A stretch of DNA of 21,935 bases. Source: a virus. The position numbers and the translations under genes were made by a program. The notes beneath the pieces were generated by a model. That model was not told the origin of the DNA, searched no databases, and saw only the letters and a program-made list of their open reading frames with translations. Shown piece after piece: positions 8,387-21,935 of this stretch; the first letter of the stretch is position 1, and each line of letters opens with the position of its first letter. The DNA lies in IMG/VR virus record IMGVR_UViG_3300031659_000116, positions 1 to 21,935 of that record; one strand, written 5' to 3'.

Positions 8387-8394
8387 TATTTATA
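8387..8394 (-). promoter_or_regulatory. T4-type late promoter for gp18-gp19-gp20
   Basis: An exact TATAAATA on the minus strand lies in the 103-base gap between the accessory cassette and gp18. It restores strong late transcription of the tail and portal genes downstream of the inserted sugar genes. No terminator is visible between the cassette and this promoter. Confidence 0.82.
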
Positions 8395-8423: not shown

Positions 8424-8798
8424 TTATCTCTTCAATTCCTTCATCCACTCCTCATGTTTGTTCTTCTCTTCTTCCCACCATCCCTCATCAAAGTCGTGTT
8501 TATACATCCTCAGTCGAGCATCGGTCTTCTTAGCAATTACGAATGCTTGCTCTAGTAGTTGTATTACTTCTGCTTGAACATCTTTTTCTACCAGAGTCTC
8601 TGGTTTAGATAAGATCTTGTGGTATATCAATCTGTGTATATCGCAGATAGTATAGGTTCCTCTGCTACGATCACTCACACCATGACTATGTTTCTTGGCA
8701 TACTCCTCTAGTTTATCTTCTGTCCAAAGATCGGGGTTGTCCTGTGCCAAGTACTTGGGGTCTATCTTATCTTTGGGTATTAATAGATCGTCACTCAT
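8424..8798 (-). CDS. Unknown 124-aa protein closing the sugar cassette
   Basis: I do not recognise this protein. It is hydrophilic and probably mostly helical, with no signal peptide or membrane segment. Visible points are the segment YTICDIHRLIYHKIL near the middle, a likely long helix (AEVIQLLEQAFVIAKKTDAR), and a highly charged Trp-rich tail (WWEEEKNKHEEWMKELKR). The ATG overlaps the stop of the upstream glycosyltransferase as ATGA, yet it also has a strong ribosome site (GGAGGG), suggesting substantial expression. As the last gene of a phosphomannomutase and double-transferase cassette it may be a partner, adaptor or target of the transferases. That is inference from context only. Confidence 0.8.
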   Translation of the reverse strand: MSDDLLIPKDKIDPKYLAQDNPDLWTEDKLEEYAKKHSHGVSDRSRGTYTICDIHRLIYHKILSKPETLVEKDVQAEVIQLLEQAFVIAKKTDARLRMYKHDFDEGWWEEEKNKHEEWMKELKR

Positions 8799-9535
8799 AT
8801 TCCCTCCGGATACATTTGTTTGATGGTTGGTATAATGTTTCGCTTCCTACCTGCGCAGAAGTGCATGATAGAAGCATTAGGTAGTGAGTCTTCGGGTTGG
8901 TTACAGAACTTCTTGTCGTGCCTGTCATGTTCTCGAAACTTCAGTTTAGAAAGGTCATCTCCTTCGCATCGCATACAGATCTCTTCGACTGTCTTGCCGT
9001 CAAGTATACCTGATCTATGTAGGAGGTAGTGTAGGATGATCTCATCTCCGGGATGTTTATCCTTTAGTGATAATACAAACAAGTTATGATCCCAATGTTT
9101 TCTTAACTCTACTCTCTGGTTCCGATTCAACTTGATCCAGTTACCAAAGAATATGTGTGCCCCTTCTTTGTATAAAGCAGGTGCGGCATTGTATGTTCTA
9201 CTGCGGTGTGGTTCTCCTGTCACGGCATTGAGCGCATTATGTCCACCCATTGCCCTGTCGTGTAGTACACCAATCTCTGGTCTGTCCCAGAAACTTTCAT
9301 GTTCGGGTGTGGCGATAGTGTCCATGTCAATCATACACACTTGATCGTACTTGTCATACTTCTCTTGAAGCATACAAAGTTTCTGTGGTGTGAATCCCAA
9401 CTCCTCTCCCATAGGAAAGTCAAGGACTAGTTCATACTCTGCGCCTGTGGCATGGGCATACTTGCGCATCGTCTTCTCTGCTTGGTTTGCCCACTCAGGC
9501 ATTGTCCCTGCGAAGTGTTGTAGTATTATGTTCAA
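8795..9535 (-). CDS. GT-A fold glycosyltransferase, first paralogue
   Basis: This 246-residue protein looks like a GT-A type sugar-nucleotide transferase of GT8-like style. It opens MNIILQHFAGTMPEW, followed by a helix and a hydrophobic strand ending in the metal-binding DxD motif CMIDMDTIA (Asp70-Met-Asp72). Near the C-terminus ASIMHFCAG supplies a His followed by Gly, as in GT8-type enzymes where a C-terminal His completes the metal site. It is clearly paralogous to the next gene upstream (NIILQHF start, YDxVxMxDxD segment). The start is TTG, overlapping the preceding stop as TTGA with AGGA just upstream; no in-frame ATG is nearby. Donor and acceptor are not evident; a mannosyl donor is suggested by the neighbouring phosphomannomutase. 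Confidence 0.82.
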   Translation of the reverse strand: MNIILQHFAGTMPEWANQAEKTMRKYAHATGAEYELVLDFPMGEELGFTPQKLCMLQEKYDKYDQVCMIDMDTIATPEHESFWDRPEIGVLHDRAMGGHNALNAVTGEPHRSRTYNAAPALYKEGAHIFFGNWIKLNRNQRVELRKHWDHNLFVLSLKDKHPGDEIILHYLLHRSGILDGKTVEEICMRCEGDDLSKLKFREHDRHDKKFCNQPEDSLPNASIMHFCAGRKRNIIPTIKQMYPEGI

Positions 9536-10191
9536 AGAATTCCTGCCATGTGCATACTATAGTAGTTCTCTATCTTCTCTCGCTTTGGCCCTTCGGGTTT
9601 GATCTTGGTACGGACGTGAATCATCCCTGCTTGGTGGTTAGGTAGATAACTATCTTGTTGCCACATAGGATCAGCATCTTTCCATTCACACTTGCTTCTA
9701 TAGAACAACTCTGATATAATACCCTCATCCTCATACTTGTAAGGTTGATTGTATCTATCCATCCACTCATCATTGTCTGGGATTGCAGACCGAAGTTTCT
9801 GTCTCTGTTCGCGAGTCAGTTTATAGAATGCTCCACCCCAGTAACCAGTGTTCTCATCAATGCGACCTTCTAATACAAGTTTGTTCTTCAGATTCTTCTG
9901 TATTATACCTGCCGCGAACCCTACTCCCTCTGCCTTAAAGACATTGAGTCTGAGGTTCTTTGTAACAAACATATCAATGTCCAACATCAATACGTCATCG
10001 TATTCGTCCCACTTCTCATCTAGGATATGTACTTTCTGACAGGGGGGTGTGAGGTGTTCTCTAAAGACCTGACCTTCCACGAACTGATATTCGACACCTA
10101 TGCGTTCAGCATATGCGGAGATGTTCTCTACGGAGAGTTTATCTAGTGGTCTTAGTTTACCTGTGAAGTGTTGTAGTATAATGTTTCTCAT
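9532..10191 (-). CDS. GT-A fold glycosyltransferase, second paralogue
   Basis: I chose the ATG ending at 10191 (219 aa) rather than a TTG 27 bases upstream, because it makes an ATGA overlap with the phosphomannomutase stop and because MRNIILQHFTGK then lines up with the start of the neighbouring paralogue. The DxD motif is VLMLDIDMFV (Asp71-Ile-Asp73), followed by the acceptor-side segment GYWGGAFYKLTREQR and a late His in GMIHVRTKIKPEG. There is no transmembrane segment, so it should act in the cytoplasm, consistent with modifying phage proteins or a soluble or membrane-bound carrier before lysis. The duplication suggests a two-sugar addition or two different acceptors. Confidence 0.82.
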   Translation of the reverse strand: MRNIILQHFTGKLRPLDKLSVENISAYAERIGVEYQFVEGQVFREHLTPPCQKVHILDEKWDEYDDVLMLDIDMFVTKNLRLNVFKAEGVGFAAGIIQKNLKNKLVLEGRIDENTGYWGGAFYKLTREQRQKLRSAIPDNDEWMDRYNQPYKYEDEGIISELFYRSKCEWKDADPMWQQDSYLPNHQAGMIHVRTKIKPEGPKREKIENYYSMHMAGIL

Positions 10192-10877
10192 AATAATAAC
10201 TCTCGTGTATCTTGCCAAGTACTAACCGAAAATACTTGGTTGGGGTTTAACTTACTGGAGATAGGATAATCATTCCCTTCTGGATCTGTACGATCTCCGT
10301 AAAACTTTATCTGTTCGGTAGTAGCAAACTCTCTTAGGATCTGTTCCTTATTGTATCCTTTAGGGAATATATCAATACCAGTCTCTCCACCTACATCTAC
10401 TTGTAATGTCGGAAACTTCTCATTCAGTTCTTTGGCAATCTTGGCGCGTTCTTTAGTTTGGCAGTCATACTCATAGTAATGTGTCCGTTCGGTCTGGGTC
10501 GCATTACGACCAACAACACTAAAATTACACATACCTGTTCTGTCTTCGAGGTGTATTCCTGTGCGTACTGGGTATGCGCTCATCTCTAGTTTTGTTAACA
10601 AGAATGATCTAACTTCTTCGGGTAGTTGCCAGACGCTAGAAAGTATTCTATTATCTTTCATCCAAACGTCATTGCCGCTACAGTTGAACACTTTAATACA
10701 AGCATTATAAACGGCACTGCCTACTTGCTCTAGTGTCTTCGCTCTATCACTTCCTGTAACTAAGAACACTCTGTGAGTATTTGCGAATGCGATGAACTCT
10801 TCTTCGAAGCAAGGATCCATAGTTCCTCTGCTTGGAGTGAGTGTTCCGTCTACATCAAATATGTAATCATGTATCAT
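10188..10877 (-). CDS. Phosphomannomutase of the eukaryotic PMM1/PMM2 type (HAD family)
   Basis: This protein of about 229 residues interconverts, by family, mannose-6-phosphate and mannose-1-phosphate, the step before GDP-mannose. From the chosen ATG the catalytic segment is IFDVDGTLTPSR with nucleophile Asp8 and acid/base Asp10. Further landmarks in the same order as human PMM2 are VTGSDRAKTLEQVG, GMCNFSVVGRNATQTER (PMM2 GMLNVSPIGR...), GIDIFPKGYNKEQIL (SFDVFPDGWDKRYCL), FYGDRTDPEGNDYPI (FFGDKTMPGGNDHEI) and the end FSVSTWQDTRELL. One difference is GGETGID where PMM2 has GGQISFD, so a phosphate-contacting Ser is Gly. The start is chosen on AAGGA five bases upstream; an ATG at 10892 would add MSRNI. 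It heads an overlapping cassette with two glycosyltransferases. Confidence 0.88.
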   Translation of the reverse strand: MIHDYIFDVDGTLTPSRGTMDPCFEEEFIAFANTHRVFLVTGSDRAKTLEQVGSAVYNACIKVFNCSGNDVWMKDNRILSSVWQLPEEVRSFLLTKLEMSAYPVRTGIHLEDRTGMCNFSVVGRNATQTERTHYYEYDCQTKERAKIAKELNEKFPTLQVDVGGETGIDIFPKGYNKEQILREFATTEQIKFYGDRTDPEGNDYPISSKLNPNQVFSVSTWQDTRELLL

Positions 10878-10885
10878 AATATTCC

Positions 10886-10914
10886 TTGACATAATGTAAT
10901 TCTTCTGCTATAAT
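10886..10914 (+). promoter_or_regulatory. Perfect sigma-70 promoter facing into gp17 (antisense)
   Basis: On the plus strand TTGACA (10886-10891) and TATAAT (10909-10914) are separated by exactly 17 bases, with TGC directly before the -10 giving an extended -10 as well. Predicted initiation is near 10921. It is the only consensus host-type promoter I found, and it points opposite to every gene here, into the 3' end of the large terminase gene. Such a match by chance is unlikely but not excluded. It could make an antisense RNA or serve an early transcript. Confidence 0.6.
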
Positions 10915-10949: not shown

Positions 10950-12563
10950 TTACCAATCACGATCACCTGTAGTATCGCCTATATCGTGCCATCCACCTTG
11001 CCAATTATTATCTGTCTCTTCTATATAGGAAGATCCGTCATCGATGAATCCGAAGGGTACCACGTCATCACTGATCGCTTGTGTTCTTTCCTCGAACATC
11101 ATTTGTTTAAGGTTGATGTCTGTCATATCTGCGAAGAACTGCGTAGACACAAAGTATCCAAACATTACTAGGTTCATCATCAAGTCATCATGGTTGTTAT
11201 CAGATGCTTCGTATGACTGACCCTTACCTACAAAGGTAGAGATCTCTAGTATGGTGTTCTCATCATAGACTCGCAGTTTCTGCTCTTCGATGATATCCTT
11301 GATAGCAGAACAACCCAGTCTCTTAACCTTGCGGTTCATCTCAATGCCTAGTGCGTTTGCCTTAGTTGCGCTAGATACATGGAGGTTCTCATACTCTAGT
11401 TCGTAGTATAATCCATTACAGACCACACCACCTTGATCATTTGCCTCAACTACTACCCATGCCTCATTGTAGAGATTCGCATACTTATATATAATATTAG
11501 GAAAGAGCAATGGAGAGATACTATTGTTTCTATAGACCGCAACTTGTTTGAACGGTCTTTCGGAAATATCTATGACGTTGAACGTCGAATAATCCTGCCC
11601 TCTTCCCTTACTCACATCTACCGTCATAATATATTCATGTTCGGGTTGTGGTTCGCTATAGATTAAACAGTCACCCGATTCTAAAACAAGATGGGGTGCC
11701 TGACCGCGTAAACCCATCAGTGTCTCTGCATTGATCAGGGTATCTCCAGTACCAAAGAAAGTATTACCAAATTCTTGATCGAACTGCAATGAAGATGTGT
11801 TAGCAATAGTTTGCTTCTTCCATGCATCGTCACGTCCGGGAACATCCCACCAGTCCACACGGAATGGTTTGTATTCATTGACACCCTGTACGGCACCTGT
11901 CCAGATCTTCTCGAACTGATTACCCACGCCATTAGCAGTAGAGGTAATGATTACCTTTGTATCAACACCCGAAGAGACAACAGGATACGTTGAAGTATAG
12001 AACTCAGCAGCCTTTTCAACAAAAGCAAACTCATCAAGAAAGAGTAGATTAACAGACATACCACGAATAGAAGAACCAGAAGTAGCCGCGGCAATAATTC
12101 TAGAGTTATTACTAAATTCGATTGATCCTTTGTTGAGTGCTTTGCATCCCGGTTGAAGGAAGAACGGAAGGTTCTCCAACATGAGCGTAACTCGCGCAAG
12201 CATCTCTCGTGCAGTGGCACCTTTGTTTGCGAGGATTGCGATTGTTTTCTCTGGGTGGAAGAGTGAGTACCATAGTAGATAACCCACACTACTAATAGAC
12301 TTACCAGACTGCCGACAAGCAAGGACAATAGAGAACCTATTCTCGTCAAAGTGCTTGAACATATCTTCTTGATATGGGTATAGATCGAAATGCACCAGAC
12401 CGCGATCAAGATGTATCACCTTCACATAGGTCTTGCAAAAGTATACAGGGTCGTTCATGCATTTTTGATATTCTCTTAACTTATGTTTGTCCCACTGTTC
12501 TTCGACCCCATCTCTCTTTACTTGAGGGTTGCCAAGATATGAGTCTTTAGTCTGTATCGTCAT
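10950..12563 (-). CDS. gp17: Terminase large subunit gp17
   Basis: This 537-residue packaging motor ATPase and headful nuclease (T4: 610) shows all the expected elements. The N-terminal ATPase domain has Walker A ACRQSGKS (about 82-89), Walker B LLFLDE (Asp177, Glu178) and coupling motif TSTANG (207-212). The C-terminal RNase H-like nuclease has YIMTVDVSKGRGQDYS (Asp316), VVVEANDQG (Glu373) and NNHDDLM (Asp459/460), matching T4 Asp401, Glu458 and Asp542. The start overlaps the end of gp16 by 17 bases and has no good ribosome site, so translation probably depends on gp16. T4 has gp18 directly downstream; here a sugar cassette intervenes. Confidence 0.97.
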   Translation of the reverse strand: MTIQTKDSYLGNPQVKRDGVEEQWDKHKLREYQKCMNDPVYFCKTYVKVIHLDRGLVHFDLYPYQEDMFKHFDENRFSIVLACRQSGKSISSVGYLLWYSLFHPEKTIAILANKGATAREMLARVTLMLENLPFFLQPGCKALNKGSIEFSNNSRIIAAATSGSSIRGMSVNLLFLDEFAFVEKAAEFYTSTYPVVSSGVDTKVIITSTANGVGNQFEKIWTGAVQGVNEYKPFRVDWWDVPGRDDAWKKQTIANTSSLQFDQEFGNTFFGTGDTLINAETLMGLRGQAPHLVLESGDCLIYSEPQPEHEYIMTVDVSKGRGQDYSTFNVIDISERPFKQVAVYRNNSISPLLFPNIIYKYANLYNEAWVVVEANDQGGVVCNGLYYELEYENLHVSSATKANALGIEMNRKVKRLGCSAIKDIIEEQKLRVYDENTILEISTFVGKGQSYEASDNNHDDLMMNLVMFGYFVSTQFFADMTDINLKQMMFEERTQAISDDVVPFGFIDDGSSYIEETDNNWQGGWHDIGDTTGDRDW

Positions 12564-12969: not shown

Positions 12970-13746
12970 TTAACTAGCACTGTCAAGGTATGTTAAGTTA
13001 AACCCATAGTCACTATCAACAGATATCCCATTAGGTGTGGGTGTAGTCCGTAGGCGTGTAAGGAAGACATCACTGTCTGCTCCTATATTATATAGGTTAT
13101 TGTTAACTTCACGAATAATGCTCTTATTGGTCTGTGGCCCCATGAAGGATATCTTCATACCAAACGCAAGTGTGTAGATGATTGTTCTACGGTCACCTAC
13201 CGATCCTTCGAAGTCATCCGAGAAAGATACTGACTGTAACGTTACAGGGATATCTTCTTTGATCTCTGGGTAGTCGGCAGAGAATGGTTTAACCGTCACT
13301 GTGTACTGTGGGTTAAAGTAAGGTAAGATCTGCTCAACCATTTGCAATGCATCATCCTGACTCTTAGCATAGATGTTGACATCGAATGTCATATCATATG
13401 GTACGGAGGTAAAGAACTGAGCGCGTTGCGTAGTACTACCTGCTACTGCGGTAGAGAAATTATTAGTCTTAGGTAATTGTCTTTGGGCATCATATGACAT
13501 AGAGGTAATCTCAAATGACATACGAGGTAACTTCATTGCGACCCTACGTTCTGACTCTTCGCCAGATCTCATCTCTTCGAGTCTTTGTATGAAAGATCTC
13601 TTGGGTGCATATGACAGAGGACACTTAACTTGGGAGATAACTTCTCCGTCTTTATTTGTTCTCAAAACATATATGTTATTGAACAAAGAACCGAATACCG
13701 ATACGGCAGTCCTGACTCGTTTGTGATAGAAGTGTGTTCCAAACAT
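12970..13746 (-). CDS. gp15: Tail terminator / sheath stabiliser gp15
   Basis: This 258-residue protein (T4: 272) should cap the tail tube and sheath at the neck and join the tail to the head. It begins MFGTHFYHKRVRTAVSVFGS followed by LFNNIYVLR, which matches the conserved gp15 start. Other conserved portions are CPLSYAPKRSFIQRLEE, MKLPRMSFEITSMSYDAQRQ and VPYDMTFDVNIYAKSQDDAL. The start codon overlaps the gp14 stop as TAATG, so the neck proteins are translationally coupled. Order and neighbours (gp14, gp16) fit T4. Confidence 0.95.
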   Translation of the reverse strand: MFGTHFYHKRVRTAVSVFGSLFNNIYVLRTNKDGEVISQVKCPLSYAPKRSFIQRLEEMRSGEESERRVAMKLPRMSFEITSMSYDAQRQLPKTNNFSTAVAGSTTQRAQFFTSVPYDMTFDVNIYAKSQDDALQMVEQILPYFNPQYTVTVKPFSADYPEIKEDIPVTLQSVSFSDDFEGSVGDRRTIIYTLAFGMKISFMGPQTNKSIIREVNNNLYNIGADSDVFLTRLRTTPTPNGISVDSDYGFNLTYLDSAS

Positions 13747-15503
13747 TATTCCATGTCTCCGAATGGGTTACCTTCAGAGAAGTCTAAGAAGTCTGATTCA
13801 AAGTCATCAAAGAAATTATTCTGTGTAGTTCCACCTAATGTAGGAGAAACGTTGATTTCCATCAGTTCAGATACCAAAGTGGGTGCGTATGCCGCACTCG
13901 CACCAATCACCTGTTGGGTCTTCGAGAAGGTGTGTAATTTGCCGTCTGTCGCACCAACGTGTGCAAGGTATAGGGTATTATCACTATCTGACCAAGCAAC
14001 AACTTCTCCCTTGATCGTATAAGAACTATTAGTCTGAGTTACTATTTCACCACGTTTGTATTGTCCACCAGTGTATGGAGGAGCAATAGTTACGGCAGGG
14101 GCAACATCATAATATAAACCTTGCTCGATCTGTAGTATAGAATTGACCGTACCAGACGAATCTAAAACAGAGGATCCAGTAGCACCGACAGGATCAAAGT
14201 TATTTAGGTATGCGGTTGCACTATCAGATGTCCATGCGGCAGTCTGAGTTGCCAGATTAGTAGTACCTGCGGAGTCATATCGTGTTGCAATGATCTGTGC
14301 CTTGGTACCAACTCTTACTCGATACTCATCAACGAAACCTTGTAGTGCGTTCCAATCAACACCATCGACTGTTCTTGCGGCATCGGCACCTACCGAGAAT
14401 CCATTAGCAGATACCCAATCCCAAGTAACACCTGCGATATTGGCATCATACTTCTTAACAAAGTCAAAGTAGATTACTAGGTTGTTTGTGCCAGATGCTC
14501 CAATAAGAATATGGTGCCACGTTCCTGCTTCAAACAAGATATCATTATTGGTGAGTGTATCAATACCACCACCGTTATTATTACCACGAGAGTATACTAA
14601 CTGTCCTGTGTTACCAACACCCCAGAAGTATGTCTTGTCATCTTGACCACTACCACCAGTCTCAAAGAAGATTGCTTGGGTACCTGAAGCAGGTAATGTA
14701 TTTATATACACCCATGCTTCGACACTACCATTGACGTGGGTCTGTGTGTATGATGCTTCAACACCACGACCTTTGGTTACGTCCAAAGAACCTGTACCAA
14801 ACTTCTTGTTGTTTCCCGGTGGAGATGCTATTGTAACAGTGGGAGCAGTGTTATAACCAATACCACGATTTTCCAGAGTTAATCCATATACTCTACCGTT
14901 ATCATCTATTAATGATGAGGCAGTGGCATTAGCATTCACAGCACTTGCCATATTCAGTTTGTACTGATAGGCACCTTCTAGTTCAATGTCATCGATCTCA
15001 TCGATACCAACATCAAAGTCTTCGTCATTGTATTCGAACAACTCACATTGTAGTCGGAAGGTAGGTAACTGGTTCAATTGATAGAACGGAGTTTCTGTCT
15101 CGACCTTAAAGATCTCGAACATAGACTTAGAGAATGGAATGTATATTACATCACCCTCTCTAGGACGGAAGTTATATGAATCTAGTTTGTCACCGATCAG
15201 AGACTTCCAACGTCTACGAGCAGTAACGAAGGTTGCTTGGTCACGAAGTTCAACACCGAACTTAGAGAAGAGATCTCCCTCACCCCCAAACCCATCAACG
15301 TTCTCAACATACATCTCTATCTTATACGCATCACTAAAGTGTGACGGCACATCGTCCATGAAGACTTTATCTACATTGACTAGTTCACGAGGTAAATAAT
15401 AGACATCCTGACCATAGAACTTTAAAGACTCAATTACGAGATCTTCATACAAGTTCTGTTCAGGACGGAATCCACCAGATGATACCCAAGGGTTAGTTGC
15501 CAT
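13746..15503 (-). CDS. gp14: Neck protein gp14 with an inserted LamG-like domain
   Basis: This 585-residue protein is more than twice T4 gp14 (256 aa). Residues 1 to about 185 are the neck core (EDLVIESLKFYGQDVYYLPR, FRPREGDVIYIPFSKSMFEI). The C-terminal part resumes near residue 481 with KRGEIVTQTNSSYTIKGEVV and ends in an acidic FFDDFESDFLDF tail. Between them lies a LamG/concanavalin-like domain (about 232-405) with FGTGSLDV, GSVEAWVYI, GTWHHILI, LVIYFDF and ALQGFVDEYRV, the standard order for that fold. A GxGYxxAPxVTI motif occurs before it (205-230) and in variant form after it (453-480). I infer a neck subunit carrying a sugar-binding or decorative domain on the virion surface. The ribosome site AGGA overlaps the gp13 end. 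Confidence 0.9.
   Translation of the reverse strand: MATNPWVSSGGFRPEQNLYEDLVIESLKFYGQDVYYLPRELVNVDKVFMDDVPSHFSDAYKIEMYVENVDGFGGEGDLFSKFGVELRDQATFVTARRRWKSLIGDKLDSYNFRPREGDVIYIPFSKSMFEIFKVETETPFYQLNQLPTFRLQCELFEYNDEDFDVGIDEIDDIELEGAYQYKLNMASAVNANATASSLIDDNGRVYGLTLENRGIGYNTAPTVTIASPPGNNKKFGTGSLDVTKGRGVEASYTQTHVNGSVEAWVYINTLPASGTQAIFFETGGSGQDDKTYFWGVGNTGQLVYSRGNNNGGGIDTLTNNDILFEAGTWHHILIGASGTNNLVIYFDFVKKYDANIAGVTWDWVSANGFSVGADAARTVDGVDWNALQGFVDEYRVRVGTKAQIIATRYDSAGTTNLATQTAAWTSDSATAYLNNFDPVGATGSSVLDSSGTVNSILQIEQGLYYDVAPAVTIAPPYTGGQYKRGEIVTQTNSSYTIKGEVVAWSDSDNTLYLAHVGATDGKLHTFSKTQQVIGASAAYAPTLVSELMEINVSPTLGGTTQNNFFDDFESDFLDFSEGNPFGDME
14064..14147 (-). repeat. Second GYxxAPxVTI repeat in gp14
   Basis: It codes for residues 453-480, including IEQGLYYDVAPAVTIAPPY, a diverged copy of the segment at 14814-14891. 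The two copies bracket the LamG-like insert, which suggests the insert arrived within a repeat-containing linker. Confidence 0.6.
14699..14706 (-). promoter_or_regulatory. Late promoter-like octamer inside gp14
   Basis: An exact TATAAATA on the coding strand falls inside the LamG-like part of gp14, about 950 bases upstream of gp15. Codons for Tyr-Ile-Asn explain it without selection, so it may be chance. If active it would boost gp15, gp16, gp17 and the sugar cassette, which otherwise lack a nearby late promoter. Confidence 0.35.
14814..14891 (-). repeat. First GxGYxxAPxVTI repeat in gp14
   Basis: It codes for residues 205-230, including LENRGIGYNTAPTVTIASPP, a short motif common in structural proteins of marine phages. 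It directly precedes the LamG-like insert, and a diverged copy follows it. Confidence 0.6.
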
Positions 15504-20538: not shown

Positions 20539-21234
20539 TTAGATTTCTGAGGTGATTTCTTCTATTAAATCGTCTCTGTAGTCTAGAGATGCTTGTGAGA
20601 TATCAAATGTGAATGATACCGTACATCTCCAACAGTCGGTCTTTGCCGCATGATAGAATAGGTTCTCTGGTTCACCATAGTGACCAAAGTATGCCGCCTT
20701 ACATTGCCAACCCTTCTTGTCCTTCATAACGACAACTTCTTTCGATACAGGATCTACATACTCAAATTGTCCGTCTCCAGTTTCAGACCATGAGAATATT
20801 AGATTGTATGCGGCCGCGTTAGCATTGTTATGCCAAGAGATGAAACCACCGGGAGGATACCACGCAGTAAGAGCATTACAACGAGTGCCCAACCATTGCA
20901 TAATATCTTTGTTCATAAAGGCAATGTCTGCCGTTCGTTTAGTTCGTATAGATGGATGGGTGTCTCCCTCAAAGAACTCATGTCCTTTGCGACCAATACT
21001 CATCTCATATCCATACATCTTATCGGGGAAACCTTCGTGTCTGCTTCCCTGTGCTTGGATCTCTTCTAGATGATCTTTACCTGCCCAGAAGTGACGTTGA
21101 CTTGCCTCTTGTGAACACGCAAGATGGAAGTCCTTCTGGAACTGTTCTTTATCATCCAAGAGAAAGTCTCTGTATGCGTCTAATCTCTGCAACAGTTCTC
21201 TGTTTTTAATTGGTATGTCTTGCATATAACTCAT
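20539..21234 (-). CDS. 2-oxoglutarate/Fe(II) oxygenase-like protein
   Basis: This 231-residue protein has a C-terminal half that looks like the jelly-roll of 2OG-Fe(II) oxygenases: TAWYPPGGFISWHNNANAAA (His135), a strand NLIFSWSETGDGQFEYVD, then YFGHYG, and FYHAAKTDCWRCTVSF with His195 and Arg203, in the positions of the distal iron His and the 2OG-binding Arg. The usual HxD is HNN here, so the carboxylate iron ligand is not obvious and activity could be altered or lost. The N-terminal 100 residues are helical and charged with no recognised domain. The ATG overlaps the stop of the upstream transferase gene as ATGA, so the pair probably acts together, possibly on a glycan or protein. Confidence 0.65.
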   Translation of the reverse strand: MSYMQDIPIKNRELLQRLDAYRDFLLDDKEQFQKDFHLACSQEASQRHFWAGKDHLEEIQAQGSRHEGFPDKMYGYEMSIGRKGHEFFEGDTHPSIRTKRTADIAFMNKDIMQWLGTRCNALTAWYPPGGFISWHNNANAAAYNLIFSWSETGDGQFEYVDPVSKEVVVMKDKKGWQCKAAYFGHYGEPENLFYHAAKTDCWRCTVSFTFDISQASLDYRDDLIEEITSEI

Positions 21235-21935
21235 AATATGTGTCCGTCCTTATCTAATCCGCACGAGTAGTGCCGTACAATAACTGGCCCTGACTCTGGT
21301 TTGGTCTTATGCCAATTAAAAGCGTTGTAATAGTTCCATCGCAGATCATCATAGATGATGCCATAGTTTAAATCTTTGTACTTATCTTCCTTCTCTGTCA
21401 ACCACCATAGAGAGAACTGATCCCAAGACTTCAGGGAATCGATGTAACCTTCTGGCCACCATTCCTTATCCATTTGTCTCTTGGTCAAGTCTTCCCATTC
21501 TGCAACAAACTCTTTGATGATGGGTACTGTCATATCATACAAACATATACCACCACATAGAGTAAACTTTGCCTTACCTTCGGGGGTGTCAAAGTCTCGT
21601 TCAGCATAGACATATGATCTATCATCGGTCAATGCAGAGAACAACATATCGTGTTCGCTATCTCTCAAGATTTGGAAACAAGTACTAATGTCTTCGTGTT
21701 CTACTTCCATATCAACATCAAGGTACATGGTTAGGTCATAAGGAGATCTTGCCATACCTTCTAACTTGGCACGGTAGTGTCCAGTACACCATTCAACATT
21801 ATCAAAGAGATCACGATGAAGTTCTTCGAACATCCACTCTTCGCAGAACAAAGTAATCTTGGCATCAGGATAGAAGTCTAAGATGGACTCTGCTAGATTG
21901 ATTGCATACCTATAGAAGTTAATCTTATTGGATGC
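21231..21935 (-). CDS. DxD glycosyltransferase, 5' truncated by the window
   Basis: The reading frame is open through the window edge, so the N-terminus is missing; 234 residues are visible. An apparent TTG start at 21851 is not the real start because coding continues upstream (ASNKINFYRYAINLAESILD...). The visible protein shows FYPDAKITLF, then DLTMYLDVDMEVEHEDI with a metal-binding DxD (Asp73-Val-Asp75 counted from the edge), a middle segment TLCGGICLYDMTVP and a late His in IVRHYSCG, a layout typical of GT-A transferases. It differs from the two transferases beside gp17. Its stop overlaps the start of the oxygenase-like gene. Donor and acceptor cannot be told. Confidence 0.75.
   Translation of the reverse strand, partial: ASNKINFYRYAINLAESILDFYPDAKITLFCEEWMFEELHRDLFDNVEWCTGHYRAKLEGMARSPYDLTMYLDVDMEVEHEDISTCFQILRDSEHDMLFSALTDDRSYVYAERDFDTPEGKAKFTLCGGICLYDMTVPIIKEFVAEWEDLTKRQMDKEWWPEGYIDSLKSWDQFSLWWLTEKEDKYKDLNYGIIYDDLRWNYYNAFNWHKTKPESGPVIVRHYSCGLDKDGHIL

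What the first reader, a model, noticed from the sequence alone, without database searches (positions are those of the whole stretch)
8424..10892. Late sugar-activation and glycosylation cassette inserted between gp17 and gp18
T4 has gp17 and gp18 adjacent. Here a eukaryotic-type phosphomannomutase, two paralogous DxD glycosyltransferases and an unknown 124-aa protein sit between them, all joined by 4-bp stop/start overlaps. Family knowledge suggests mannose-6-P to mannose-1-P, then GDP-mannose made by a host or another phage enzyme, then transfer. Inference: a self-contained late system for mannosylating virion proteins or a host surface polymer.
Basis: partly seen in the sequence, partly recalled or inferred. 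Interest (0 to 1): 0.8.

Follow-up and report, generated by a model that had tools for sequence, protein, structure and literature searches.

The report
Phage sugar-activation and glycosyltransferase cassette
A marine T4-like phage carries, between two of its virion-building genes, a sugar-phosphate mutase-like gene and two sugar-transferring enzymes; this looks like interchangeable parts of a phage glycan-making toolkit, and the usual companion of the mutase is a second activating enzyme encoded elsewhere in the same phage.

Summary
The four genes are real, tightly coupled and under purifying selection. PMM belongs by sequence to the eukaryotic-type phosphomannomutase family (103 bits, cut-off 22.4). 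GTa and GTb are paralogous GT-A glycosyltransferases (GTa's model best matches a chlorovirus capsid glycosyltransferase); x124 is of unknown function. 'Self-contained' and 'mannosylating' are not supported: sister phages hold GTa-GTb-x124 in this slot without PMM, a 97.6% identical PMM sits in another phage's glycan island, only 1 of 88 PMM loci has these transferases nearby, and no GDP-mannose-type pyrophosphorylase (PF00483) was found in 92.7 kb of a near-identical phage. Instead PMM is accompanied by a PF01467 nucleotidyltransferase (TagD/RfaE-like) in 50 of 88 loci, adjacent in 41. The window's lineage has that gene about 13 kb away, behind the same 51-nt leader (49/51). Likely route, inferred: sugar phosphate, sugar-1-phosphate, nucleotide sugar by the PF01467 enzyme, transfer by GTs; sugar, nucleotide and acceptor unknown. 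Against: most PF01467 carriers in the phage collection show no PMM. The slot lies in the published g15-g18 hypervariable region. New variant of a known kind; the mutase-nucleotidyltransferase pair is the interesting part.

The parts
10188..10892 (-). PMM: HAD-IIB protein of the eukaryotic-type phosphomannomutase family (likely start ATG at 10877)
   Evidence: PF03332 103.3 bits, cut-off 22.4; PDB phosphomannomutases, best 1.1e-28; HAD motif residues conserved in 9 of 9 aligned phage proteins, apart from one N for D at position 49
9532..10191 (-). GTa: GT-A-fold glycosyltransferase, DxD = LDIDMF
   Evidence: AlphaFold2 mean pLDDT 84.6; VIA-align Z 15.0, rmsd 3.3, 182 residues to 2p72; both Asp of DxD invariant in 24 sequences
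8795..9535 (-). GTb: paralogue of GTa, DxD = MIDMDT, TTG start
   Evidence: hhalign to the GTa family 99.6%, E 5.9e-25 over 211 columns; BLASTP 39% over 75 aa, 2e-13; own model poor, pLDDT 49.9
8424..8798 (-). x124: unknown 124-aa protein, travels with GTa-GTb
   Evidence: no Pfam match and only weak PHROG matches (best E 0.039); 65% relative behind GTa-GTb in L042, the contig of L104; 36-37% relatives beside other genes in L092/L093
10878..10928 (-). 51-nt leader of PMM; recurs (49/51) only before the PF01467 gene in the near-identical contig G001
10886..10914 (+). 12-of-12 extended sigma-70-like promoter (TTGACA-17-TATAAT, TG before the second hexamer) inside the leader, pointing away from PMM towards the 3' end of gp17 (antisense)
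8387..8394 (-). TATAAATA, T4-late-promoter-like box between x124 and gp18 (consensus recalled)
20539..21234 (-). OG: unassigned protein; a relative (29% identity) follows PMM directly in L133
21231..21851 (-). GTc: glycosyltransferase-like protein (gene starts further upstream); a relative (36% identity) precedes PMM directly in L133
   Evidence: no Pfam match over cut-off; L133 relative has a sub-threshold Glyco_transf_8 match, 18.2 of 24.3 bits

Best explanation
The block is a modular glycan-decoration cassette in the g15-g18 hypervariable slot of a marine T4-like phage. PMM (shown by sequence to be of the phosphomannomutase family) moves phosphate from the terminal carbon of a hexose- (or heptose-) phosphate to C1 (inferred). 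A PF01467 nucleotidyltransferase encoded about 13 kb away (shown in a near-identical contig) turns that sugar-1-phosphate into a nucleotide sugar (inferred from recurrent gene pairing and a shared leader). Two small paralogous GT-A transferases, GTa and GTb, transfer sugar from this or from a host nucleotide-sugar pool to an acceptor (inferred from fold), most likely a virion protein or a surface glycan of the infected cell. The cassette was put together in steps: sister phages suggest that GTa-GTb-x124 was in the slot first and PMM came in later as a single gene (inferred; loss of PMM in the sisters is the alternative). It is not self-contained, and the sugar need not be mannose.
For: PMM family and motifs. 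GT-A fold, best match the PBCV-1 capsid glycosyltransferase A064R domain 1. GTb homologous to GTa. A PF01467 gene lies in the flanks of PMM in 50 of 88 loci and next to it in 41, in either order; in 41 of 70 PMM clusters at 90% identity (87 loci); 14 of the 50 have no gp43-like gene in the flank (gp43 by eye; five of the 14 are the loci that prompted the idea and some flanks are short); 0 of 44 GTa loci have it in their flanks. Same pair, 64 nt apart, in Acinetobacter phage Ab1-TPeters, whose PMM-like protein is only 23-26% identical to its marine relatives. 13 of 15 PMM-bearing records have a PF01467 match over cut-off, the two others being fragments of 20.0 and 9.8 kb. Directly downstream of PMM an NAD-dependent-epimerase-like gene in 21 of 87 loci and a UDP-Glc/GDP-Man-dehydrogenase-like gene in 12 of 87 (one representative of each checked by Pfam). 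In L130, L131, L135 and L136 PMM is overlapped by a GT-like ORF near long virion-protein-like ORFs (by eye, no Pfam match). Single-gene transfer of PMM: 97.6% over 695 bp, window 10187-10881, from 4 nt before the second ATG to 1 nt past the stop. Sisters without PMM.
Against: No activity has been shown for any of these proteins. In this lineage PMM and the PF01467 gene are about 13 kb apart. 38 of 88 PMM loci have no PF01467 gene in the flanks (many flanks are short). PF01467 relatives were found in 115 phage records against 13-14 with PMM relatives, so that enzyme usually works without PMM; the close relatives in Vibrio phage pv27 and Synechococcus phage S-B43 have no PMM within 4.5 kb, and of the 7 Acinetobacter records with a PMM-like gene only one is seen to have the pair (2 Acinetobacter records match the PF01467 protein). 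The PF01467 protein scores far below the NCBIfam cut-offs for both RfaE domain II (69.9 of 181.5 bits) and TagD (63.5 of 165.4); its best PDB hits are ethanolamine-phosphate and glycerol-3-phosphate cytidylyltransferase, so its substrate may not be a sugar phosphate. In 13 of 87 loci the right-hand neighbour of PMM is a UV-endonuclease-like gene (by eye), with no link to sugars. GTa/GTb are near PMM in 1 of 88 loci only, so they need not use its product. Without the five prompting loci the pairing counts are 45 and 36 of 83.
Confidence: 0.48

Rival explanations
1. One reading: mannose-6-P to mannose-1-P by PMM, GDP-mannose by a host ManC-type enzyme, mannosyl transfer by GTa/GTb.
For: PMM family membership; [quoted passage not shown] representatives of the epimerase-like and dehydrogenase-like neighbours of other PMM genes also match GDP-mannose family models.
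Against: No PF00483 match in the 92.7-kb near-identical contig nor in the complete PMM-bearing phages S-SSM7 and P-TIM68 (a host enzyme would do instead); recurrent companion is PF01467; no GDP-mannose enzyme that I recognised among the top 50 rows, which excludes nothing.
Confidence: 0.2
2. PMM is a metabolic or phosphatase-like passenger (general HAD activity or glucose-phosphate interconversion) unrelated to the transferases, which work from host nucleotide sugars.
For: PMM and the GTs are separable in both directions, and only 1 of 88 PMM loci has them nearby; the Arg of the RGT motif of cellular PMMs is one column off in the phage clade; a HAD-IIB superfamily model also matches.
Against: PF03332 far outscores generic HAD models; purifying selection; recurrent pairing with a nucleotidyltransferase and with nucleotide-sugar-modifying-like genes.
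Confidence: 0.17
3. The cassette changes the host surface (LPS or capsule), for example to exclude superinfecting phages, and not the virion. (This overlaps with the best explanation, which leaves the acceptor open.)
For: LPS-gene clusters are known in the larger cyanophage genomes near hli03 and/or phoH (PMC3037559, passages), and the near-identical contig has a glycan island at 5.7-18.7 kb behind a PhoH-like gene (PhoH by eye).
Against: Position within the virion-gene block; best structural match is a virus-capsid glycosyltransferase.
Confidence: 0.3
4. The transferases glycosylate modified phage DNA bases.
For: DNA glucosylation in T4 (recalled; also mentioned in PMC9614988, passage).
Against: A review states that there is no evidence that cyanomyoviruses use modified nucleotides or glycosylate their DNA (PMC2984593, passage). 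I did not search the window or G001 systematically for base-modification genes.
Confidence: 0.05

Closest known systems
Eukaryotic-type phosphomannomutase (PMM1/PMM2, PF03332)
   Same: Near-full-length homology, catalytic motifs, two cap-domain Arg in register
   Different: Phage family phrog_29277; a third cap Arg is one column off; substrate untested
Chlorovirus PBCV-1 A064R domain 1 (2p72)
   Same: Best structural match of GTa (Z 15.0, 182 residues, rmsd 3.3); virus-encoded and decorates a virus capsid (PMC9614988, passages)
   Different: 14% identity; A064R-D1 is a beta-L-rhamnosyl transferase assayed with UDP-L-Rha and is fused to two more domains; donor and acceptor of GTa unknown
g15-g18 hypervariable region of cyanomyoviruses
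   Same: Extra genes inserted in the structural module between g15 and g18 (PMC2984593, passage)
   Different: Contents named there are plastoquinone- and carbon-metabolism-related; host of this phage unknown
LPS/glycan islands of marine T4-like phages
   Same: PMM and GTa-GTb-x124 relatives lie in islands with GT-, epimerase- and methyltransferase-like genes in L105 and L104
   Different: Here a small cassette within the virion genes
RfaE domain II / TagD (PF01467) nucleotidyltransferases
   Same: The companion gene matches PF01467 and both models and phrog_7878
   Different: Far below the curated cut-offs of both; a pairing with a PMM-family mutase was not found in print

Membership tests
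Eukaryotic-type phosphomannomutase | PF03332 over cut-off and better than generic HAD models | tested here: met
   103.3 bits against 22.4; Hydrolase_3 25.3
Eukaryotic-type phosphomannomutase | DxDGT catalytic Asp pair and other HAD motifs | tested here: met
Eukaryotic-type phosphomannomutase | Cap-domain phosphate-binding Arg set (role recalled) | tested here: inconclusive
   two Arg in register; the Arg of RGT is at the neighbouring column in all 9 phage proteins aligned
Eukaryotic-type phosphomannomutase | Mannose-6-P/mannose-1-P mutase activity | not testable with these tools
   needs an enzyme assay
GT-A glycosyltransferase (GTa) | GT-A fold | tested here: met
   predicted model, pLDDT 84.6; Z 15.0 to 2p72, 12.7 to UGGT, 11.1 to glycogenin and LgtC
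GT-A glycosyltransferase (GTa) | DxD metal motif | tested here: met
   both Asp invariant in 24 sequences
GT-A glycosyltransferase (GTb) | GT-A fold | tested here: inconclusive
   own model pLDDT 49.9; homology to the GTa family by hhalign 99.6%
GT8 or another CAZy family | Curated family match of GTa or GTb | tested here: inconclusive
   no Pfam match for either; none sensible among 24 GTa relatives; structural neighbours spread over several kinds of enzyme
GDP-mannose pathway | Phage-encoded mannose-1-P guanylyltransferase (PF00483) | tested here: inconclusive
   no match in the 92.7-kb contig, S-SSM7 or P-TIM68; matches in 2 of 18 records searched; the window's genome is incomplete
Self-contained four-gene system | The four genes co-occur | tested here: not met
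   no PMM match in sisters L027/L041/L091, L028, L034/L040; GTa/GTb/x124 near PMM in 1 of 88 loci
g15-g18 hypervariable region | Non-core genes inserted between g15 and g18 | tested here: met
   PMC2984593 (passage)

The most novel reading that the evidence does not exclude
PMM-family mutase plus PF01467 nucleotidyltransferase is a widespread, so far unnamed phage route to an activated sugar that bypasses the GDP-mannose pyrophosphorylase class: for example a manno-configured hexose-6- or heptose-7-phosphate is turned into the 1-phosphate by the mutase and then joined to CMP or AMP by the TagD/RfaE-like enzyme, and epimerase- or dehydrogenase-like enzymes and GTs use the product to glycosylate virions or infected cells.
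Probability: 0.22. Interest if true: 0.8.

Novelty: new variant of a known kind. Interest (0 to 1): 0.55.

Why it matters
Marine-virus PMM-like genes are common in the viral collection (536 relatives among 600 candidate stretches in one capped scan), yet are annotated as hypothetical in S-SSM7 and P-TIM68. The companion PF01467 gene has a relative in roseophage CRP-6 (53.4% identity) whose function its authors call unclear (PMC6918029, passages). A recurrent two-enzyme pair gives a joint, testable hypothesis for both. If true it would show where the many small glycosyltransferases of such phages may get a donor, perhaps one that the host does not make.

Tried and rejected
Self-contained mannosylation: rejected in its strong form (PMM and GTs separable; no PF00483 match in G001). 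Generic phosphatase: disfavoured by scores. Bacterial relatives as a guide to substrate: GTa gave 4 Rhizobiales contigs; in three of them (L210, L211, L213) I saw no telling neighbourhood by eye, L212 was not looked at. A PMM-profile search gave matches in 3 of 398 genomes of one phylum that looked like other HAD proteins by eye; three longer stretches around them were fetched and not analysed. GTb structure: model too poor to search. x124: no family found; relatives sit next to spanin-like ORFs (by eye) in L092/L093. Sequence search of solved structures with the GTa profile: nothing significant (best LgtC row E 0.11). Phage collection: no match for GTa, GTb or x124 at E 0.01. PADLOC and Rfam were not used. 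VIA-align rows not listed for GTa exclude no family. Papers on virion glycosylation in other phages: listings only, none read.
Full report
Setting. The window is a 21,935-bp virus record with T4-type virion genes on the minus strand; over 1.45 kb at the large terminase gene it is 70.8% identical in DNA to phage C48C1, filed under Kyanoviridae. The host is unknown. A near-identical contig of 92,722 bp (G001) was fetched and served as the wider genome; it is not known to be complete, so absences there are weak evidence.

Observation. Four ORFs lie between gp17 and gp18 with three 4-bp overlaps. In C48C1 no gene lies between gp17 and gp18. [quoted passage not shown] The genes are under purifying selection: dN/dS 0.17, 0.04 and 0.12 for GTa, GTb and x124 against L041, and 0.23, 0.11 and 0.14 for PMM against L105, L129 and L133, the last two with dS above 1.5. 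Comparisons with L104 are saturated, and those with the near-identical L004 rest on 0-7 amino-acid changes per cassette gene (GTa 0.49 from 6 changes).

PMM. Pfam PMM scores 103.3 bits (cut-off 22.4), the generic Hydrolase_3 25.3. A profile of nine phage relatives matches 15 distinct phosphomannomutase sequences of the PDB at 106.6-147.8 bits and the two alpha-phosphoglucomutase sequences listed at 57.7. The HAD motif residues that I checked are conserved in 9 of 9 rows, apart from one N for D at position 49. One cap-domain Arg that cellular enzymes have in RGT is found one column earlier in the phage proteins. Sequence therefore supports mutase chemistry but not the choice of mannose.

Transferases. 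GTa: model pLDDT 84.6, pTM 0.86; best VIA-align match is a PBCV-1 capsid-glycosylation glycosyltransferase (2p72, Z 15.0, rmsd 3.3, 182 residues), then UGGT (12.7), glycogenin and LgtC (11.1). A review says that this PBCV-1 domain was first thought to prefer UDP-glucose and was later shown to be a beta-L-rhamnosyl transferase with UDP-L-Rha (PMC9614988, passages), a warning against guessing donors from the fold. GTb is homologous to GTa (hhalign 99.6%; BLASTP 39% over 75 aa); its own model is too poor to use. GTa has relatives at 54 loci of the viral collection, often several per locus; four bacterial contigs hold a relative.

The cassette is a mosaic. In 5 near-identical contigs the four-gene block lies between gp17 and gp18 (L003-L007). 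In three sister contigs (L027/L041, L028, L034/L040; gp17 95% identical) GTa and GTb follow gp17 directly or behind a small ORF, and no PMM match is found; L034/L040 is cut within GTb. L028 has 13 nt between gp17 and GTa; L041 has instead a small ORF of about 100 codons with a signal-like N-terminus (by eye). A 97.6% identical PMM lies in L105 within a glycan island (carbamoyltransferase by Pfam, a methyltransferase-like gene under its cut-off, radical-SAM- and GT25-like genes by similarity to those of G001); the DNA match covers 695 bp, from 4 nt before the second ATG of PMM to 1 nt past its stop, and the next gene differs. GTa-GTb-x124 relatives (74, 70, 65%) lie in a similar island in L104/L042 with an epimerase, a methyltransferase and a GT25-like gene. 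Of 88 PMM loci, only the window-like L127 has GTa, GTb or x124 in its flanks. The simplest reading is that PMM entered as one gene into an existing transferase block; its loss in the sisters is the alternative.

The missing activating enzyme. PF00483 has no match in G001 nor in the complete PMM-bearing phages S-SSM7 and P-TIM68; it matches in 2 of 18 records searched, G009 and G010. Looking at five PMM loci of other phages I saw a small PF01467-like gene next to or near PMM in each. A test with a profile of five such proteins (G001, L012, L014, L015, L019) on 88 loci found it in the flanks of 50 and adjacent (under 300 nt between open frames) in 41, upstream or downstream. The 88 are the best 80 of 536 relatives from a capped scan plus L012, L014, L015, L018, L019, L021, L022 and L125; L013, L016, L017 and L020 were left out. 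Without the five prompting loci (L012, L014, L015, L018, L019) the counts are 45 and 36 of 83. By clusters at 90% identity it is 41 of 70 (87 loci, L125 left out). By a plainer measure, the neighbouring ORF in my ORF selection, it is 37 of 87 (33 left, 4 right). Of the 50, 14 have no gp43-like gene in the flank, so inherited order near the polymerase need not be the whole cause, but five of the 14 are the prompting loci and some flanks are cut short. Of 44 GTa loci (450,891 bases) none has the gene in its flanks, and none has PMM; this is a control on flanks only, since G011 and G013 hold GTa, PMM and PF01467 genes at different places. The pair also stands in Acinetobacter phage Ab1-TPeters, where the PMM-like protein is 23-26% identical to its marine relatives but over the PF03332 cut-off (45.2 bits).

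Against the pairing. In the phage collection 115 records match the PF01467 protein but 13-14 match PMM; close PF01467 relatives in Vibrio phage pv27 and Synechococcus phage S-B43 have no PMM within 4.5 kb, although in S-B43 the next genes are annotated as dTDP-glucose dehydratase and epimerases. Of 7 Acinetobacter records with a PMM-like gene only Ab1-TPeters is seen to have both. Among 23 records PF01467 is over its cut-off in 13 of 15 with PMM (the two without are fragments) and in 3 of 8 without PMM: G010 strongly, G012 and W03 weakly and in longer frames; G014 is under the cut-off (PMM status of the smaller records). In S-SSM7 and P-TIM68 the PF01467 genes are not next to PMM and may be of another subtype.

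In the window's own lineage the PF01467 gene is at 90,490-90,963 of G001 and PMM at 76,398-77,102. Both are preceded by the same 51-nt leader (49 of 51 identical), not found elsewhere in G001 at up to 14 substitutions; a 21-nt core with 2 mismatches lies at 10,982 within the GT island. The leader holds a 12-of-12 extended sigma-70-like promoter that points away from the gene in both places. G001 has 11 such 12-of-12 sites, 8 on the plus and 3 on the minus strand, two of these 3 being the leader. It may be a shared control element or a scar of the transfer; the sense promoter of PMM is not established.

Neighbours elsewhere partly fit nucleotide-sugar work: directly downstream of PMM an NAD-dependent-epimerase-like gene in 21 of 87 loci and a UDP-glucose/GDP-mannose-dehydrogenase-like gene in 12 of 87, but also a UV-endonuclease-like gene (by eye) in 13 of 87; DAHP/KDO8P-synthase-like genes in 9 loci (the one in L014 passes the NCBIfam KDO8P-synthase cut-off). 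In L130, L131, L135 and L136 PMM is overlapped by a GT-like ORF (by eye; no Pfam match) near long virion-protein-like ORFs, and in L133 PMM stands between relatives of the window's own GTc and OG proteins.

Mechanism. Shown: gene order, families, predicted fold of GTa, pairing counts. Inferred: mutase reaction, sugar-1-phosphate as substrate of the PF01467 enzyme, transfer to virion or host glycan. The PF01467 protein scores 69.9 bits with RfaE domain II and 63.5 with TagD, both far under cut-off, so nucleotide and phosphate substrate are open. Literature seen: a roseophage study calls the function of its glycerol-3-phosphate-cytidylyltransferase-like gene unclear (PMC6918029, passages; that phage, CRP-6, holds a 53.4% relative); a cyanophage study found a cytidylyltransferase among proteins detected by mass spectrometry in its structural proteome and calls its function unclear (PMC9146016, passages), but that protein has 362 residues and is probably another subtype. 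Searches for phosphomannomutase with phage terms and for cytidylyltransferase with marine-phage terms listed no paper that I recognised as describing such a pair; I read titles and abstract starts only, and most subscription journals are not in that library.

Verdict. The cassette is a new variant of known marine-phage glycan genes in a known hypervariable slot; the mutase-nucleotidyltransferase pair is what deserves follow-up.

Noticed in passing
window 10886-10914 (+); same element reversed before the PF01467 gene at G001 90468 (L100): A 12-of-12 extended sigma-70-like promoter points from the PMM leader into gp17 in antisense; the same element, also pointing away from its gene, lies before the PF01467 gene. 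It could make an antisense RNA against the end of the terminase gene.
   Followed up: partly
window 318, 660, 4056, 8387, 14699, 20503 (-): Six TATAAATA boxes, all on the coding strand (1.03 expected, 0 of 100 shuffles reach 6): likely T4-type late promoters (consensus recalled).
   Followed up: partly
window 13746-15503 (-): gp14 neck protein is 585 aa, about twice that of C48C1 (292 aa by its coordinates); the Pfam neck domain covers residues 4-175 only and the middle looks lectin-like (LamG-like by eye, no Pfam match).
   Followed up: partly
window 20539-21851 (-): A GT-like protein (GTc) and an unassigned protein (OG) form a second pair; their relatives flank a PMM gene in L133.
   Followed up: partly
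G001 5.7-18.7 kb (L096): Glycan island with carbamoyltransferase, radical SAM, one GT8 and two GT25 genes over Pfam cut-offs, behind a PhoH-like gene (by eye).
   Followed up: partly
L092 5114-5440, L093 3967-4296: x124 relatives (36-37%) lie between two spanin-like ORFs (by eye); no glycosyltransferase noticed nearby.
   Followed up: partly
L041 5689-6000: In a sister phage the PMM slot holds a small ORF with a signal-peptide-like start instead.
   Followed up: no
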